Position numbers and translations under genes: made by a program
Part shown: positions 1 through 6,048 of the stretch, piece after piece
How positions within the stretch are numbered: position 1 is the stretch's first letter
Layout of the letters: every line of letters starts with the position of its first letter
The notes under the pieces: generated by a model
Seen by the model: only the letters and a program-made list of their open reading frames with translations
Told to the model about the DNA's origin: nothing
The model's database searches: none
Assembly (NCBI GenBank): GCA_008501735.1
Contig: QQUF01000023.1
Coordinates: 1-6,048, forward strand
Source: Calditrichota bacterium
GTDB taxonomy: Bacteria > CLD3
DNA: 6,048 nt
Direction of reading: 5' to 3'

Positions 1-1829
1 CACAAGGAAGTGATTTTTCTTTGGAATTAATTAGTGCAATTTTAGAAATTAAGACATTCAAACTTAGTACAAAGATGAATGCCTTACAGCAGAAGTATTC
101 ACTTGTCCTAAAGTCAGAGACAGTTTACGACAAACTCACAAAGATTTACAATTTTACACACAACTTAGTTCAAAAATACATTTACTACCAAATGAGTGAG
201 GATTTCAGATTAGATTTACACAGTGCTTTGGTTGACACTTTGGAAGAATTTTTTGAAGGTGAAGAAATTTACAAAGTTGCAGAACCTTACTCTTATCACT
301 TTGGAGTTGCCAATGGAATTATTGATGAGAACGGAAAACTGCAAATTGAAAATGAAATTGAAAAAGAGAGTTTGAAGAAGTATTTGGAGTTTCAAAAATA
401 CTTAGGTAAAAATTATGCTAAAGAGTATCGGAATGACGAGACGGTTCAAAAATATTTAGAAATATCCGAGATTGCTAAATTGCTAAATGATAAAAAACTA
501 GAAATAGATTTTAAATTAAAATTATCAAATATTTATCATCTTTTGGGTAAGCGTAAAAAAATAGTGCCTTTGTTAGAGGTCTGTCTAAAGGAATCAAAAA
601 AGCATAATTTTCGCAAACTTGAAGGAGATTCATATTTTGATTTGGGTAAGAACTCATTCAATAAAGCGGATTACCCAAAAGCCATAGATTTTTTTGCAAA
701 GTCTTTAAAAATTTATGAAGAAATTGAGGATAAAAAAGGGGTTCAAAAAATATTTGGAGGTATATCCACCATTCATATTTATAAAGGCAATTTTGACAAA
801 GCTATGGAGTATTTGAAAAAACAGTTAAAAATCAGTGAAGAAATTGGTGATAAAGGCGGAATTGCAGGAGCAGTTGGAAATATGGGAGTTATCTACTTAG
901 ATAAAGGTAACTTTGATAAAGCAATGGAGTATTTTGCACAGCAGTTAAAAATCAATGAAGAAATTGGGGATAAAAGTGGAGTTGCGTTAGTAGTTGGAAA
1001 TATGGGAATTCTTTATCTCGAAAAAGATGATTATGATAAAGCAATAGAATATTTAGCACAGCAGTTGAAAATCAATGAAGAAATTGGAAATAGAAGTGGG
1101 ATTTCAACAGCAGTTGGAAATATGGGAAATGTTTACTACGGACAAAGCAATTATGATAGAGCAATGGAATGTTATGAAAAACAATTGATAATTAGTGAAG
1201 AAATTGGTGATAAAAGTGGGATTTCAACAGCAGTTGGAAATATGGGAAATATTTACTTCGAAAAAGGCAACTATGATAAAGCAATAGAATACTTAGCACA
1301 GCAGTTGAAAATCAGTGAAGAAACCGGTGATAAAAGAATGGTTGCACACTCAGTTGGAAATATGGGAAATATTTATACTGAAAAAGGTGATTACGTCAAT
1401 GCTATGAAATGCTGCAATAAGGCAATTGCAATTTCAGAAGAAATCGGGGCAAAACCTATCTTGTGTTATCAATTAAATTTTAAAACTCAACTTTTATTTT
1501 TACTTAAAAAGTATAAGGAAGCCCAAAACTTAAATGCAGAAAGAGTAAGGATTGCAGAAGAAATTGATAATAAAGAACTCATTTTCAAAGGGAAAATTAT
1601 CTCAGAGAAAATAAATTTTGCACTTGGTAATAAAGAAAATCCTCCTAAACAACTACTTAAAATTCTTTCAAAATCCGAAAACGGAGAAGAAAAAGCAACT
1701 CTCAATTACGAACTTTGGAAAATGACTTCTGAAGGAAAGTACAAAACAGAAGCATTAAAATTCTACCAAGAGTTATATTCTAAAACATCTAAATTTGAAT
1801 ACAAAAAACGCATCGAAGAACTTTCCTAA
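1..1829 (+). CDS. STAND-like ATPase/TPR protein, gene A (5' partial)
   Basis: The reading frame is open from the left edge (first full codon at base 3), so the gene begins upstream. A TTG at 21 is an internal Leu codon, because the preceding residues QGSDFS match gene B residues 399-404. About 608 codons are present; by alignment to gene B roughly 398 N-terminal residues, including the whole P-loop domain, are missing, giving an expected length near 1006 aa (inference). Visible parts in order are the end of the helical/winged-helix-like region (bases 3-86), a linker with the motif FTHNLVQKYIYYQ, the YLEFQK segment at 381-398, nine TPR units of exactly 40 residues (540-1619), and a C-terminal cap from INFALG (1611) with FEYKKRI near the stop. 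TPR signature residues (G, Y, A, A) recur throughout. It is likely a cytosolic sensor/switch protein whose TPRs bind a ligand or partner. Confidence is high for the architecture and low for any specific function. Confidence 0.93.
   Translation, partial: QGSDFSLELISAILEIKTFKLSTKMNALQQKYSLVLKSETVYDKLTKIYNFTHNLVQKYIYYQMSEDFRLDLHSALVDTLEEFFEGEEIYKVAEPYSYHFGVANGIIDENGKLQIENEIEKESLKKYLEFQKYLGKNYAKEYRNDETVQKYLEISEIAKLLNDKKLEIDFKLKLSNIYHLLGKRKKIVPLLEVCLKESKKHNFRKLEGDSYFDLGKNSFNKADYPKAIDFFAKSLKIYEEIEDKKGVQKIFGGISTIHIYKGNFDKAMEYLKKQLKISEEIGDKGGIAGAVGNMGVIYLDKGNFDKAMEYFAQQLKINEEIGDKSGVALVVGNMGILYLEKDDYDKAIEYLAQQLKINEEIGNRSGISTAVGNMGNVYYGQSNYDRAMECYEKQLIISEEIGDKSGISTAVGNMGNIYFEKGNYDKAIEYLAQQLKISEETGDKRMVAHSVGNMGNIYTEKGDYVNAMKCCNKAIAISEEIGAKPILCYQLNFKTQLLFLLKKYKEAQNLNAERVRIAEEIDNKELIFKGKIISEKINFALGNKENPPKQLLKILSKSENGEEKATLNYELWKMTSEGKYKTEALKFYQELYSKTSKFEYKKRIEELS
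540..1619 (+). repeat. Nine 120-bp in-frame TPR repeats in gene A
   Basis: Nine units of exactly 120 bp (40 codons) follow each other without a single indel; the unit start recurs from 540 to 1500 at 120-bp steps. The 15-bp string GTTGGAAATATGGGA (protein VGNMG) occurs at 873, 993, 1113, 1233 and 1353, always 120 bp apart. Units three to seven are highly alike, with cores such as YDKAIEYLAQQLKI followed by SEEIGDK; the first two and last two units are more diverged. Forty-residue TPR units of this type resemble the kinesin-light-chain-like TPR class and form a right-handed superhelix for protein or peptide binding. The DNA-level similarity of the central units indicates recent amplification or homogenisation. 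Confidence 0.93.
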
Positions 1830-1835
1830 ATATCA

Positions 1836-1840
1836 AAGGA
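1836..1840 (+). promoter_or_regulatory. Ribosome binding site of gene B
   Basis: AAGGA lies 6 bases upstream of the ATG at 1847, inside the 17-bp gap after the gene A stop (TAA 1827-1829). The spacing is good for a Shine-Dalgarno sequence and supports this start. The protein then begins MFIPRHE, as in gene C, which gives independent support. Confidence 0.75.
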
Positions 1841-1846
1841 AAAGAA

Positions 1847-4800
1847 ATGTTCATCCCAAGACACGAAACGGAAGTTTTACAAGAAAAACTAAACCAAGCA
1901 ATTGAAAACGGAATTGGCTCAACAATTCTAATTTCAGGTGAACCCGGAATTGGTAAAACTACTCTAATCAAAAATTTTATGGACAACTGCGACAACACTT
2001 CTGAAAAGAATGTTCTCACAGCAGTTGGTTCTTGCTTGGATATGGACGGAGTTTCGAGAGGTTTTTTACCTTGGAGAGAAGTTCTTATTGAACTTGACGC
2101 AGACAAGGCAGCTGGAAAAGACGAAGAGAAAAAATCTAATTTTAAAAAAATTGTTAAAACAGTTTTTGATGAAGCAGGTTCACAGTGGCTTGAAGCTATT
2201 CCTGTAATTGGAGATATTTCTTCTGCAATCTTTGAGACCGCAAAGACAATTTCCAAAGATGAATTAATTGACACAGAAACAGGAGATTCCAAAAAGTTAG
2301 CTTTAAAAGACAGACTCAAAAATGTTGCAAAAGAATGTACAGGCGAATGGTTAAATGTAATTCCTGTTGTAGGAAATTTGTCAGCAGCGATTTACAAAAC
2401 CACGAATGCGATTCAGAAGTCCAAGCAAGTAACCTACTCACAAAATCAGCAAGACTTTTTTATTCGAGTGATGAGTCGTTTTCGCGAACTTGCAGAAAAC
2501 AACCCTGTAATCATTTACATTGACGATTTGCAATGGGCAGATATTTCTTCGATGAATTTGTTTTTCTACTTAGCCAAGAATTTAAAAGATTCTTCTTATC
2601 CGCTAATTCTCATCGGTTCATTTCGACCACAAGATGTAAAAGACGGAAGACTAAATCCGATTTCTGGTGAAATAGAGCGTCATCCTTGGGAAGAAAAGAT
2701 GAACAATCTTGACCGTTACGAAGCTTCTGAGTTAATCGAAATTTCCTATTTAAACCAAAATCAAATCAGCTCTTACATAGATTTGCAATTTCCGAAGAAT
2801 GAATTTTCGGCAAAATTCAAAAATGAAATTGTTGGACTTACGAAAGGCAATTCACTTTTTGTCAGAGAGCTTTTGCTTAATCTTGAAGAGAGAAAAATCA
2901 TTTTTGCAAAAGACGGAACTTACTTTGCAGATGAGACTTTAGACCTTTCCACTTTACCAAAGACGGTTTCAGGAGTAATCAAAGAAAGATTTCAGAGACT
3001 TAGCGAAGACTTGCAAGAAATTTTGCAAATTGCTTCTGCACAAGGAAGTGATTTTTCACTTGAATTAATTGCTTCAGTTTTAGAAATCAATTCATTCAAA
3101 TTAAGTAGAAAAGTCAACGAATTACAGCAAAAGTATTCGCTTGTTCTTAAGTCAGAAACAGTTTACGACAAACTCACAAAGATTTACAATTTTACTCACA
3201 ACTTAGTTCAAAAATACATTTACTACCAAATGAGTGAAGACTTCAGATTAGACTTGCACAGTGCTTTGGCTGAAACTTTGGAAGAATTTTTTGAGGGAGA
3301 AGAAATTTACAAAATTGCTGAACCTTACTCTTATCACTTTGGAGTTGCAAATGGAATTATTGATGAAAATGGAAAGCTAATTATTAATGATAATTCAGAT
3401 AAGGTAAGTTTAGCAAAATACTTGGAATTTCAAAAACTTCTTGCCGAAAGTTATAAAGACAATCACCAAAATGAAGAAGCCTTAGAAAAATTATTTAAAA
3501 TCGTTGAGCTTACCAAGTTTTTATCTGAAAAAGAAAATGAGTTAAATGCCAAAATTTTAATTTCGAAGATTTTGGCATTAATAGGAAAAATAGATAAAGC
3601 AGTTTACTACTTAGAAATAGCTTTACAAGAATCGAAAGAATTAGGTTTTAAGAAAATTGAATCTGATTGTCTTGATCGAAGAGGGGCAATTTTTGGACTT
3701 CAAGGAGAAGTTGATAAATCTATGGATTATTTTAATCAATCTTTAAAAATTAGAAAAGATTTAGGTGAATGGGAATTAGTTGCACAAACTTATACAAACA
3801 TTGGTATGGCTTATTCTCATAAAGGTAATTATGATAAAGCTATGGAATGTTACCAAAAAAATTTGAAGATTTATGAAGAAATTGGCAAATTAGAAAATGC
3901 CTCATTAGTTTATGTTGGAATGGGAAATCTTTATAAAAACCAAGGTGAATATGACAAGGCATTGGAATGCTATAATAAACTATTGAATAATGAGAAAATG
4001 CGTGATAGCGAAAGTGCAAAATCTGTAATTCTCAATATAGGAATTATTCACTATGAAAAAGGTGAGTATGAAGAAGCGATAAAATGTCATAAACAGTTTT
4101 TAGAAAACAGTAAGAAAGCAAGTTATAAAAAAGGAGTTGCTTTAGGAGTTGCAAATTTAGGTTTTGTTTATTTGGCTCAAAATTTATTAAATAAAGCGAT
4201 AGAGTGTAATAAAGAGTTCTTAAAAATAAGTCAAGAATTAGGTGATAAAATGGCAATTGGATATGCTTATTCACTCTTTGGGGCAATTTACGGTAGGTTA
4301 GAGGATTTTGAGAAAATGATGTCTTATCACCAAAAAGAATTAGAGATTTACGAAAGAATAGGATACAAATTTGGAATGATAAATGCCTTAGAAGCTATTG
4401 GTGCAGTTTACCCAACATTGGGTAATTATGAAAAGGCAATTGAATATTTTGAAAGAGCTTTGGAAATTGCAGAAGAAGTAGATGATAAAAAGGGAATAGC
4501 AAAAGCTTATGGTTATATAGGTTTGGTTTATTTTGATAAAGGAGACTATGAAAATGCAATGAAATATTTTGATAAAGAATTAAAGATTTTTGAAAAATTG
4601 CAAAGCAAAAAAAGTATAATTCATTCCTTGAATAAAATAGGAGATGTTGAAAGATCCAAAGGCGAATTTAATAAGGCACTAAAACTGTATGGAAAAAGTT
4701 TAAAAATAGCAAATTTTATTGATGATTCAATTTTGAAGGGAAATACAATTTTGAAGATTGGAATAACTCACTTCGAAGAAAATAATATTGAAAAAGCTCA

Positions 4801-5248
4801 GAAGTTATTTGATGAAGCACTTAAACTGCTACACCAAAAGAAATTTGATACTGCCGAAGTACTTTTTTACAAATCAAAACTTCTTTTCCAGATAAAAGAT
4901 TATGAAGTATCTAAAAAATTAAGTGAAAAAGGATTAGTTATTTTCGAAGAGATGAAAAGAAAAGATAAATTTGCTAAACAAAACTTGTTTGAAAGTAAGA
5001 TTCTTTCTTCAAAAATAAATTTCGCACTCGGCGACAAAACAAACCCACCAAAGCAACTACTTGAAATGCTTAGTCAAACAGAAGTAAAAGAAGAAATTGC
5101 AACACTGAACTATGAAATTTGGAAAATGACTTCCGAAGATAAATACAAAATTGAAGCATTAAAACTCTTCCAAGAATTATATTCTAAAACACCAAATTTT
5201 GAATACAAAAAACGCATCAAAGAACTCGAAAACCAAGGCAAACACTAA
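1847..5248 (+). CDS. STAND-like P-loop ATPase with TPR array, gene B (complete)
   Basis: This 1133-residue protein starts at ATG 1847 behind an AAGGA and shares its N-terminus with gene C. The AAA_16-like ATPase has Walker A GEPGIGKTT (31-39), Walker B VIIYIDDLQWAD (221-232, acidic pair D226/D227) and a sensor-like LILIGSFR (253-260). A TKGNSLFV segment (332-339) matches the GNP-F element of STAND/MalT-like ATPases. A helical/winged-helix-like region follows to about 420, then a linker with FTHNLV (449-454), YLEFQK (525), about twelve TPR units (about 578-1054) and a conserved cap from INFALG (1057). The usual GRE near the N-terminus reads PRHE. Between Walker A and B lies an internally duplicated W-L-x-x-I-P-V segment. 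No signal peptide or clear transmembrane segment is seen, so it is probably cytosolic. By family precedent it would act as an ATP-dependent switch that oligomerises or changes shape when its TPRs bind a target. No kinase, cyclase, DNA-binding or nuclease domain is recognisable. It lies 17 bp after gene A and abuts gene C, so co-transcription is likely. Confidence 0.95.
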   Translation: MFIPRHETEVLQEKLNQAIENGIGSTILISGEPGIGKTTLIKNFMDNCDNTSEKNVLTAVGSCLDMDGVSRGFLPWREVLIELDADKAAGKDEEKKSNFKKIVKTVFDEAGSQWLEAIPVIGDISSAIFETAKTISKDELIDTETGDSKKLALKDRLKNVAKECTGEWLNVIPVVGNLSAAIYKTTNAIQKSKQVTYSQNQQDFFIRVMSRFRELAENNPVIIYIDDLQWADISSMNLFFYLAKNLKDSSYPLILIGSFRPQDVKDGRLNPISGEIERHPWEEKMNNLDRYEASELIEISYLNQNQISSYIDLQFPKNEFSAKFKNEIVGLTKGNSLFVRELLLNLEERKIIFAKDGTYFADETLDLSTLPKTVSGVIKERFQRLSEDLQEILQIASAQGSDFSLELIASVLEINSFKLSRKVNELQQKYSLVLKSETVYDKLTKIYNFTHNLVQKYIYYQMSEDFRLDLHSALAETLEEFFEGEEIYKIAEPYSYHFGVANGIIDENGKLIINDNSDKVSLAKYLEFQKLLAESYKDNHQNEEALEKLFKIVELTKFLSEKENELNAKILISKILALIGKIDKAVYYLEIALQESKELGFKKIESDCLDRRGAIFGLQGEVDKSMDYFNQSLKIRKDLGEWELVAQTYTNIGMAYSHKGNYDKAMECYQKNLKIYEEIGKLENASLVYVGMGNLYKNQGEYDKALECYNKLLNNEKMRDSESAKSVILNIGIIHYEKGEYEEAIKCHKQFLENSKKASYKKGVALGVANLGFVYLAQNLLNKAIECNKEFLKISQELGDKMAIGYAYSLFGAIYGRLEDFEKMMSYHQKELEIYERIGYKFGMINALEAIGAVYPTLGNYEKAIEYFERALEIAEEVDDKKGIAKAYGYIGLVYFDKGDYENAMKYFDKELKIFEKLQSKKSIIHSLNKIGDVERSKGEFNKALKLYGKSLKIANFIDDSILKGNTILKIGITHFEENNIEKAQKLFDEALKLLHQKKFDTAEVLFYKSKLLFQIKDYEVSKKLSEKGLVIFEEMKRKDKFAKQNLFESKILSSKINFALGDKTNPPKQLLEMLSQTEVKEEIATLNYEIWKMTSEDKYKIEALKLFQELYSKTPNFEYKKRIKELENQGKH
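2168..2257 (+). repeat. First copy of internal W-IPV duplication in gene B ATPase
   Basis: Residues 108-137 contain W114 followed by L-E-A-IPVIGD and a run rich in S, A and I. They align without gaps to residues 162-191, with 13 of 30 identical, including the W-L, I-P-V, G, S, A-I and T positions. The segment sits between Walker A and Walker B. From memory, related bacterial AAA_16/TPR proteins have a single APTWL-x-x-LP element at about this place; here the element seems to occur twice. Confidence 0.7.
2330..2419 (+). repeat. Second copy of internal W-IPV duplication in gene B ATPase
   Basis: Residues 162-191 (W168, then L-N-V-IPVVGN) repeat residues 108-137 at a distance of 54 residues. 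The DNA of the two copies has drifted well apart, so the duplication is old. It is present in the same form in gene C (5570-5659 and 5732-5821), so it predates the B/C duplication. The role is unknown; a paired amphipathic helix or an interaction surface near the nucleotide site is possible. Confidence 0.7.
3125..3268 (+). repeat. Conserved linker block shared with gene A (87-230)
   Basis: This 48-codon block, from QQKYSLVL to DLHSAL, encodes exactly the same residues as bases 87-230 of gene A, at an offset of 3038. By hand count 10 of 144 bases differ and all ten changes are synonymous. It contains the FTHNLV motif that in related ATPases joins the switch region to the TPR solenoid. Similarity continues on both sides, from about 3041 to about 3438, at a lower level. 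Confidence 0.88.
3578..5008 (+). repeat. About twelve diverged TPR repeats in gene B
   Basis: Roughly twelve units of 38-40 residues run from LIGKIDKA (3578) to just before INFALG (5015). Each carries the TPR pattern, for example GNYDKAMECYQKNLKI and GNYEKAIEYFERALEI. Unlike gene A, the units differ strongly from each other in both DNA and protein, and two appear one or two residues short. The distance from YLEFQK to INFALG is 1596 bp here against 1230 bp in gene A, so B has three more units. Asp is almost always GAT in this region (21 GAT to 2 GAC), unlike the ATPase domain of the same gene. Confidence 0.9.
5015..5245 (+). other. Conserved C-terminal cap module of gene B
   Basis: Residues from INFALG to the end match the gene A C-terminus (1611-1826). 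Shared elements include NPPKQLL, ATLNYE, WKMTSE, KYK-EALK, QELYSKT and FEYKKRI. It is helical and TPR-like, and probably closes the solenoid. From memory, similar ends occur in other bacterial AAA_16/TPR proteins. Gene B adds a short tail (ENQGKH) after KELE, where gene A stops at EELS. Confidence 0.8.
5235..5238 (+). promoter_or_regulatory. Possible weak ribosome binding site of gene C
   Basis: AAGG inside the last codons of gene B ends 10 bases before the ATG at 5249. The spacing is long and the match short, so gene C may depend mainly on translational coupling to gene B, whose TAA is directly followed by this ATG. Confidence 0.4.
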
Positions 5249-6048
5249 ATGTTCATTCCAAGGCACGAAACAGAAGTTTTACAGGAGAAACTAAACCAAG
5301 TAATTGAAAACGGAATTGGCTCAACAATTCTAATTTCAGGTGAACCCGGAATCGGTAAAACTACTTTAATCAAAAACTTTATGGACAATTGTGACAAAGC
5401 TTCAGAAAAGAATGTTCTCACAGCAATTGGTTCTTGCTTGGATATGGACGGAGTTTCTCGTGGTTTTTTGCCTTGGCGAGAAGTTCTAATTGAACTTGAC
5501 GCAGACAAAGCAGCAGGTAAAGATGAGGAAAAGAAGTCTAACTTTAAAAAAATAGTAAAAACTGTTTTCGATGAAGCAGGTTCACAGTGGCTTGAAGCGA
5601 TTCCTGTAATCGGAGACATTTCTTCTGCAATTTTTGAAACGGCAAAGACAATTTCCAAAGATGAATTAATTGACACAGAAACAGGAGATTCCAAAAAATT
5701 AGCTTTAAAAGACAGACTCAAAAACGTAGCGAAAGAATGTACAGGAGAATGGCTGAATGTAATTCCTGTTGTTGGAAATTTGTCAGCAGCGATTTACAAA
5801 ACTACAAATGCCATTCAGAAATCTAAACAAGTTACTTACTCACAAAACCAGCAAGACTTTTTCATTCGAGTAATGAGTCGTTTTCGTGAACTTTGTGAAA
5901 ACAATCCTGTTGTGATTTACATTGACGATTTGCAATGGGCTGACATTTCTTCGATGAATCTGTTTTTCTATTTGGCAAAGAACTTGAAAGATTCACCTTA
6001 TCCAATGGTTTTAATTGGCTCATTCCGACCTCAAGACGTGAAAGATGG
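5249..6048 (+). CDS. STAND-like P-loop ATPase, gene C (3' partial)
   Basis: This frame opens at the ATG immediately after the gene B stop and stays open for 266 codons to the right edge. The protein matches gene B from residue 1 (MFIPRHETEVLQEKLNQ), which fixes the start. Walker A GEPGIGKTT is at residues 31-39, Walker B VVIYIDDLQWAD at 221-232, the sensor-like segment MVLIGSFR at 253-260, and both W-IPV copies are present. Differences from gene B are few and mostly conservative (for example A18V, N50K, T51A, V60I), while synonymous sites have changed widely. The gene surely continues with the helical region and probably a TPR array beyond the window. Its reading frame equals that of gene B, so only a single TAA separates the two proteins. 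Function is as for gene B: a predicted nucleotide-dependent switch with unknown output. Confidence 0.93.
   Translation, partial: MFIPRHETEVLQEKLNQVIENGIGSTILISGEPGIGKTTLIKNFMDNCDKASEKNVLTAIGSCLDMDGVSRGFLPWREVLIELDADKAAGKDEEKKSNFKKIVKTVFDEAGSQWLEAIPVIGDISSAIFETAKTISKDELIDTETGDSKKLALKDRLKNVAKECTGEWLNVIPVVGNLSAAIYKTTNAIQKSKQVTYSQNQQDFFIRVMSRFRELCENNPVVIYIDDLQWADISSMNLFFYLAKNLKDSPYPMVLIGSFRPQDVKD

What the first reader, a model, noticed from the sequence alone, without database searches (positions are those of the whole stretch)
381..5245. Fixed ends, variable middle: constant ATPase/linker/cap around divergent TPR arrays
A and B are nearly identical in the linker and similar in the cap, but their TPR arrays differ in sequence and in length by three whole units (1230 bp against 1596 bp between YLEFQK and INFALG). 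This resembles the pattern of variable recognition regions on a constant signalling frame seen in NLR-type receptors. It suggests that the TPRs recognise different or changing targets.
Basis: partly seen in the sequence, partly recalled or inferred. Interest (0 to 1): 0.7.

Follow-up and report, generated by a model that had tools for sequence, protein, structure and literature searches.

The report
Tandem ATPase receptors with varied sensors
A bacterium carries a row of sister genes whose proteins share an almost unchanged ATP-using engine but differ in their attached repeat-built binding arm, most of all in the groove expected to hold the target, which looks like a small bacterial set of sensors for different targets; the targets and the output are unknown.

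Summary
The window is an assembly-graph loop: both ends share exactly 127 nt with one gene of a larger tandem array. That array has six assembled genes, probably eight or more, and a second cluster lies about 40 kb away. Across 45 copy pairs, median amino-acid identity is 92% (ATPase), 73% (linker), 35% (TPR) and 67% (cap); dN/dS is 0.08, 0.14, 0.52 and 0.28. Silent sites are diverged in all four, so selection rather than copying alone keeps the ends alike. Real gene-conversion tracts also exist (615 and 646 nt). Within TPR units, variation concentrates on one face of helix A, the classical ligand groove: pN/pS about 1.2-1.3 in the most homogeneous arrays, against about 0.6 at other exposed sites. 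This supports paralogues with different binding specificities. It does not show changing targets, because no strains were available. No effector domain is fused, so these are not canonical NLR/Avs receptors. Closest parallels are fungal NLRs with concave-face TPR selection and bacterial STAND-TPR sensors. A cyclase-STAND-TPR neighbour with the same cap is a plausible output partner. Verdict: real, new variant of a known kind, mechanism partly inferred.

The parts
3..398 (+). Gene A, 5'-truncated: linker (winged-helix/ARC-like part) up to YLEFQK; first 127 nt of the window are the assembly overlap with array gene g4
399..1610 (+). Gene A TPR array, 404 aa, about ten 40-aa units; the central five units are internally homogeneous
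1611..1829 (+). Gene A cap (INFALG... to stop)
1847..2644 (+). Gene B AAA_16 (STAND-like) ATPase, intact Walker A GEPGIGKT and Walker B IDDLQWAD, no N-terminal effector domain
2645..3436 (+). Gene B linker, ending at YLEFQK
3437..5014 (+). Gene B TPR array, 526 aa, about 13 units, positionally orthologous to those of array genes g1 and g3
5015..5248 (+). Gene B cap (predicted helical continuation of the solenoid)
5249..6046 (+). Gene C, 3'-truncated: ATPase only; the last 127 nt of the window (5922-6048) are identical to g4

Best explanation
The window is part of a tandem, co-directional array of paralogous STAND-type (AAA_16) ATPases with C-terminal TPR superhelices and no fused effector. The ATPase and linker are held nearly constant by purifying selection and by occasional gene conversion between copies. 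The TPR superhelix diversifies, above all at groove-facing positions of helix A, so each paralogue most likely binds a different protein or peptide ligand. Proposed working (inferred): ligand in the TPR groove releases ATP-dependent assembly of the common ATPase core. The cores are similar enough to co-assemble or to share one downstream partner; a plausible partner is the cyclase-STAND-TPR protein (h2) of the sister cluster, which carries the same cap. Shown: anatomy, constraint gradient, conversion tracts, groove-focused variation. Inferred: ligand binding, assembly, output.
For: Nine full or near-full copies plus the window fragments lie in one genome: tandem g1-g6 on C41, h1 and h3 in a second cluster. 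Neighbouring genes are 0-17 nt apart or overlap slightly. ATPase dN/dS is 0.08 with dS about 0.45-0.9, so constancy is constraint rather than recency. TPR dN/dS is 0.52. The most variable of 40 unit positions in 109 units are 11, 10, 40 and 7 (p=0.00015 for the groove set). These map by the TPR consensus to groove positions 13, 12, 2 and 9, among the seven concave-face positions that Magliery and Regan found most variable (PMC1261162). Without any preset classes, variability along helix A has a 102-degree period (p=0.006) and helix B has none. Between positionally orthologous units of B, g1 and g3, groove positions are 35% identical, other exposed positions 51%, structural positions 65%. Within homogeneous arrays groove pN/pS is about 1.3 (bootstrap 0.97-1.83) against 0.64 (0.50-0.85) elsewhere. 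AlphaFold gives a continuous TPR solenoid at pLDDT mostly 70-94. h2 (class III cyclase + AAA_16 + TPR + cap) sits between h1 and h3.
Against: Groove positions are the most variable in TPRs generally (PMC1261162), so entropy alone is not specific to this family. The pN/pS estimate above 1 has a confidence limit touching 1, its position-permutation p is 0.08 when tested as a ratio, and dS is partly saturated. Of four control TPR orthologue pairs, two keep the groove as well as other sites and two do not; one of the latter has only two usable units. In one search the B-g1 pair shows no groove excess. No ligand, effector, oligomer or expression evidence exists.
Confidence: 0.5

Rival explanations
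1. Ordinary paralogues: TPR arrays merely evolve faster than P-loop domains under relaxed constraint, with repeat gain and loss, and carry no special recognition role.
For: TPR dN/dS stays below 1 overall (0.52), and repeat arrays gain and lose units easily; the h2 orthologue in the related genome differs by one 40-aa unit. Control pairs are mixed.
Against: Structural TPR positions remain 60-78% identical while groove positions fall to 20-35%. Relaxation would spread changes over buried positions too. Variation follows one helix face.
Confidence: 0.22
2. Fixed insulation network: each paralogue binds a different, unchanging partner of the cell itself (a signalling or assembly scaffold family), diversified once and now stable. 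This overlaps the best explanation on different specificities but denies a sensor role with changing targets.
For: B, g1 and g3 keep positionally orthologous arrays. The flanking genes are housekeeping (PGI-like, M50 peptidase, aspartokinase, uvrB), with no defence genes. The genome is rich in TPR signalling proteins.
Against: Groove divergence of the h2 orthologue between genera (20-23% groove identity against 61-62% at other exposed sites) does not fit a fixed conserved partner, although unit orthology there is uncertain.
Confidence: 0.2
3. Gene conversion alone explains constant ends: the ends are recently copied, and the middle is simply not copied.
For: Exact tracts: 615 nt g1-g3 (last TPR units plus cap), 646-nt shared repeat in g4/C/A, 177 nt g2-g4. 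The A-g4 linker is 97.7% identical and identity falls sharply at the TPR start.
Against: Most ATPase pairs have dS 0.45-0.9 with dN 0.03-0.08, which is old divergence under constraint, not recent copying.
Confidence: 0.05
4. Assembly artefact: the window contig is chimeric and its paralogue contrast is not real.
For: Both window ends are exact 127-nt overlaps with g4, so the contig is an unresolved graph loop. The joins of A to its own ATPase and of C to its own TPR are unknown.
Against: Gene B is complete inside the contig with its own unique TPR array. The same pattern holds in the contiguous C41 array independently of the window.
Confidence: 0.03

Closest known systems
Fungal NLR-like STAND proteins with TPR/ANK/WD repeats (Podospora anserina hnwd and NB-ARC-TPR genes; PMC2873952, PMC4986451)
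   Same: STAND-like NTPase plus internally similar superstructure-forming repeats, repeat-number differences, exchange among paralogues, variable positions on the TPR concave face
   Different: Fungal genes carry N-terminal effectors and NACHT/NB-ARC NTPases, with documented strain polymorphism and recognition phenotypes. Here there is an AAA_16 ATPase, no effector, a bacterial tandem array, and no strain data.
Avs / antiviral STAND receptors (e.g. Avs5, PMC12931631)
   Same: NTPase with C-terminal repeat (TPR) sensor
   Different: Avs proteins have a fused N-terminal effector (Sir2, nuclease) and, as far as I know, are not described as arrays of near-identical effector-less paralogues. PADLOC finds only generic TPR models and weak hits such as mads_8 here.
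Class III cyclase-AAA_16-TPR proteins (h2 and its G001 orthologue; similar proteins on rhizobial plasmids)
   Same: AAA_16 + TPR architecture; h2 shares the TPR type and the cap with the array proteins and lies in the sister cluster
   Different: The array proteins lack the cyclase and have a different ATPase subtype (about 24% identical to h2's).
DGR-diversified STAND sensors of multicellular bacteria (PMC10907252)
   Same: STAND sensor with a variable C-terminal ligand domain
   Different: There the variation is C-type-lectin residues made by a reverse transcriptase; no reverse transcriptase was found in this genome.
LGN/Pins and kinesin light chain TPRs
   Same: 40-aa-type TPR units; best natural structural relatives of the TPR part; peptide binding in the groove is general knowledge
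   Different: Eukaryotic; no ATPase

Membership tests
STAND / NLR-like receptor (Avs, NACHT, NB-ARC) | Intact P-loop NTPase (Walker A and B) followed by a winged-helix/ARC-like segment | tested here: inconclusive
   AAA_16 hit above cut-off; Walker motifs invariant in nine copies. The winged helix is not demonstrated: the AlphaFold model is poor there.
STAND / NLR-like receptor (Avs, NACHT, NB-ARC) | C-terminal superstructure-forming repeat sensor | tested here: met
   TPR families with strong scores; predicted solenoid at pLDDT mostly 70-94
STAND / NLR-like receptor (Avs, NACHT, NB-ARC) | N-terminal effector or adaptor domain | tested here: not met
   The ATPase starts at residue 1; no other domain in Pfam, PADLOC or NCBIfam
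STAND / NLR-like receptor (Avs, NACHT, NB-ARC) | Ligand-triggered oligomerisation and immune output | not testable with these tools
   Needs biochemistry or phage challenge
Fungal hnwd-like diversifying repeat receptors | High internal repeat identity (85% or more) in the repeat array | tested here: not met
   Best arrays (A, h2) have unit pairs at about 60-78% aa identity outside the groove
Fungal hnwd-like diversifying repeat receptors | Variable/selected positions on the concave binding face | tested here: met
   Variable positions: met. Positive selection as such: only suggestive, and the controls are mixed.
Fungal hnwd-like diversifying repeat receptors | Repeat-number polymorphism among strains | not testable with these tools
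   No second strain or congener held; the headless subtype is found only in the own genome among 386
Class III cyclase-AAA_16-TPR family | N-terminal class III cyclase domain | tested here: not met
   Absent in the array proteins, present in h2
DGR-diversified receptors | Reverse transcriptase in the genome | tested here: not met
   PF00078 search of own genome: none; 3 of 14 control genomes positive

The most novel reading that the evidence does not exclude
A bacterial, reverse-transcriptase-independent receptor repertoire: one operon of co-assembling, effector-less STAND ATPases whose TPR sensor arms are diversified by selection on the groove and reshuffled through gene conversion in the constant flanks, feeding a shared cyclase output.
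Probability: 0.18. Interest if true: 0.75.

Novelty: new variant of a known kind. Interest (0 to 1): 0.52.

Why it matters
If right, a bacterium keeps a clustered set of sensors on one signalling chassis, diversified at the predicted binding surface, as described for fungal NLR-like genes. That would offer a compact system for testing how repeat-protein receptors gain new specificities, and whether near-identical ATPase cores let different sensors share one output. It also warns that such arrays are collapsed by short-read assembly: the window itself is an unresolved loop, so gene number and repeat diversity in draft genomes are probably underestimated.

Tried and rejected
Chance or a two-gene coincidence: rejected by 45 pairwise comparisons. 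DGR: no reverse transcriptase. Phage or plasmid origin: no phage match and only distant (about 20%) cyclase-AAA-TPR proteins on plasmids. Near relatives in named genomes and viral contigs: none by peptide-pattern scans, which find close relatives only. Defence-island context: flanks are housekeeping genes. RNA elements: none in the window. A possible membrane role for the doubled WLxxIPxxG motif in the ATPase insert was considered but has no test here; the insert was not found elsewhere. The structure of the ATPase part was too poor to use, so no fold search was run. Formal codon site models (PAML/HyPhy) were not available; simple Nei-Gojobori counts were used instead.

Full report
What is there. 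The window is a whole contig (C35) of a 4.14-Mb draft genome in 59 contigs. It holds three co-directional genes of one family: A (3-1829, start missing), B (1847-5248, complete, 1133 aa) and C (5249-6046, end missing). B is an AAA_16 ATPase with intact Walker motifs, a linker, a long TPR array and a C-terminal cap; nothing else is fused to it. The linkers of A and B are 85.6% identical in protein over the shared 132 residues, so 'nearly identical' overstates it.

Where the window sits. The genome has a tandem array of six more family genes (g1-g6) on contig C41 and a second cluster about 40 kb away. In that second cluster h1 and h3 are of the same type, and between them lies h2, a class III cyclase-AAA_16-TPR protein with the same cap. 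The first 127 and the last 127 bases of the window are each identical to parts of g4, and the sequences differ at the next base inward. Such equal exact overlaps at both ends are what a de Bruijn assembler with k=127 leaves at a repeat. The simplest linear reading (inference) is that C35 is a loop that belongs inside the C41 array, through a 646-bp repeat shared by g4, the missing front of A and the missing back of C. The array then has at least eight genes, and the assembled g4 may be a chimera. A mixed population is the alternative.

Constraint by domain. Over 45 pairs of copies (36 for the cap), median amino-acid identity is 92% in the ATPase, 73% in the linker, 35% in the TPR and 67% in the cap. 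Median dN/dS is 0.076, 0.137, 0.52 and 0.28. Silent sites are well diverged in the ATPase (dS mostly 0.45-0.9), so purifying selection, not recent copying, keeps it constant. Copying does occur: exact tracts of 615 nt (g1-g3, last TPR units and cap), 646 nt (the loop repeat, inferred) and 177 nt (g2-g4), and a 97.7%-identical A-g4 linker that breaks down at the start of the TPR. B, g1 and g3 have positionally matching TPR arrays; A and the others do not clearly match them beyond the first one or two units. One copy, g6, lacks the cap.

Where the TPR varies. In 109 units of 40 residues the most variable positions are 11, 10, 40 and 7. By alignment of the TPR consensus these are canonical positions 13, 12, 2 and 9, part of the set 2, 5, 9, 12, 13, 33 and 34 that Magliery and Regan found to be the most variable and on the concave ligand face (PMC1261162). 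The preset groove set exceeds other exposed positions (p=0.00015). Without presets, variability along helix A has a period of 102 degrees (p=0.006), and helix B shows none. Between matching units of B, g1 and g3, identity is 35% at groove, 51% at other exposed and 65% at structural positions, with pN/pS 0.86, 0.48 and 0.44 (p=0.015 for groove against other exposed). Between units inside the most homogeneous arrays (A, h2 and the h2 orthologue of the related genome), groove pN/pS is about 1.3 (bootstrap 0.97-1.83) against 0.64 (0.50-0.85) elsewhere.

Limits of that evidence. TPR grooves vary in general, and the controls are mixed. Two of four reciprocal-best TPR pairs between this genome and its family mate keep the groove as well as other sites; the other two do not, one of them with only two units. 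In the same call B-g1 shows no groove excess, while B-g3 and g1-g3 do. The ratio test by position permutation is only p=0.08. The h2 orthologue pair is 69% identical overall, with 20-23% groove identity against 61-62% at other exposed sites, but unit-by-unit orthology is uncertain because one unit was gained or lost and the units resemble each other.

Distribution. The specific headless ATPase subtype was found in no other of 386 genomes searched, including eight others of the phylum, and by pattern scans in no named genome or viral contig. h2 does have a full-length orthologue in the one relative of the same family, there followed by a YhcG-type nuclease gene. This suggests (inference) that the cyclase protein is older and the headless array is a lineage-specific expansion.

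How it most likely works. Shown: constant ATPase frame, diversified TPR groove, conversion tracts. Inferred: each paralogue binds its own protein or peptide ligand in the groove; binding drives ATP-dependent assembly; the cores are kept alike because they co-assemble or share a partner; h2 is a plausible partner because it shares the cap and lies in the sister cluster. A fixed network of scaffolds with different but stable cellular partners is a serious rival.

Relation to what is known. Fungal NLR-like genes show the same kind of pattern, with TPR sites under positive selection on the concave face (PMC4986451) and repeat instability generating altered specificities in the related WD-repeat genes (PMC2873952). 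Bacterial STAND receptors such as Avs5 sense phage proteins through C-terminal repeats but carry a fused effector (PMC12931631). The present family fails the effector test and is therefore not filed as NLR or Avs; it may work like them in its sensor half. No reverse transcriptase is present, so it is not a DGR system (compare PMC10907252).

Noticed in passing
window 1-127 and 5922-6048: Both contig ends are exact 127-nt matches to array gene g4 (L047:11513-11639 and 10994-11120), marking the contig as an unresolved assembly loop inside the C41 array.
   Followed up: yes
window 2174-2413 (B residues 110-189): The ATPase insert holds two copies of a WLxxIPVxGxxSxAI-like motif, nearly invariant in all copies; the insert was found in no other of 386 genomes. 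Role unknown.
   Followed up: partly
L047:457-3855 and 6910-10308 (g1, g3): The last 615 nt are identical between g1 and g3, a very recent conversion or partial duplication covering the last TPR units and the cap.
   Followed up: yes
L102:4576-9205: In the related genome the h2 orthologue is followed on the same strand, with overlapping reading frames, by a YhcG-type PDDEXK nuclease gene, a possible output partner.
   Followed up: partly
L048:2034-4049 and L102:9363-11354: uvrB lies close to the g-array in this genome and next to the h2 orthologue in the relative, hinting at a shared ancestral locus.
   Followed up: no
L047:15904-18606 (g6): The last array gene lacks the C-terminal cap.
   Followed up: no
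G000 whole genome: The genome is very rich in TPR proteins (137 TPR_12 matches listed), including kinase-, cyclase- and STAND-fused forms.
   Followed up: no
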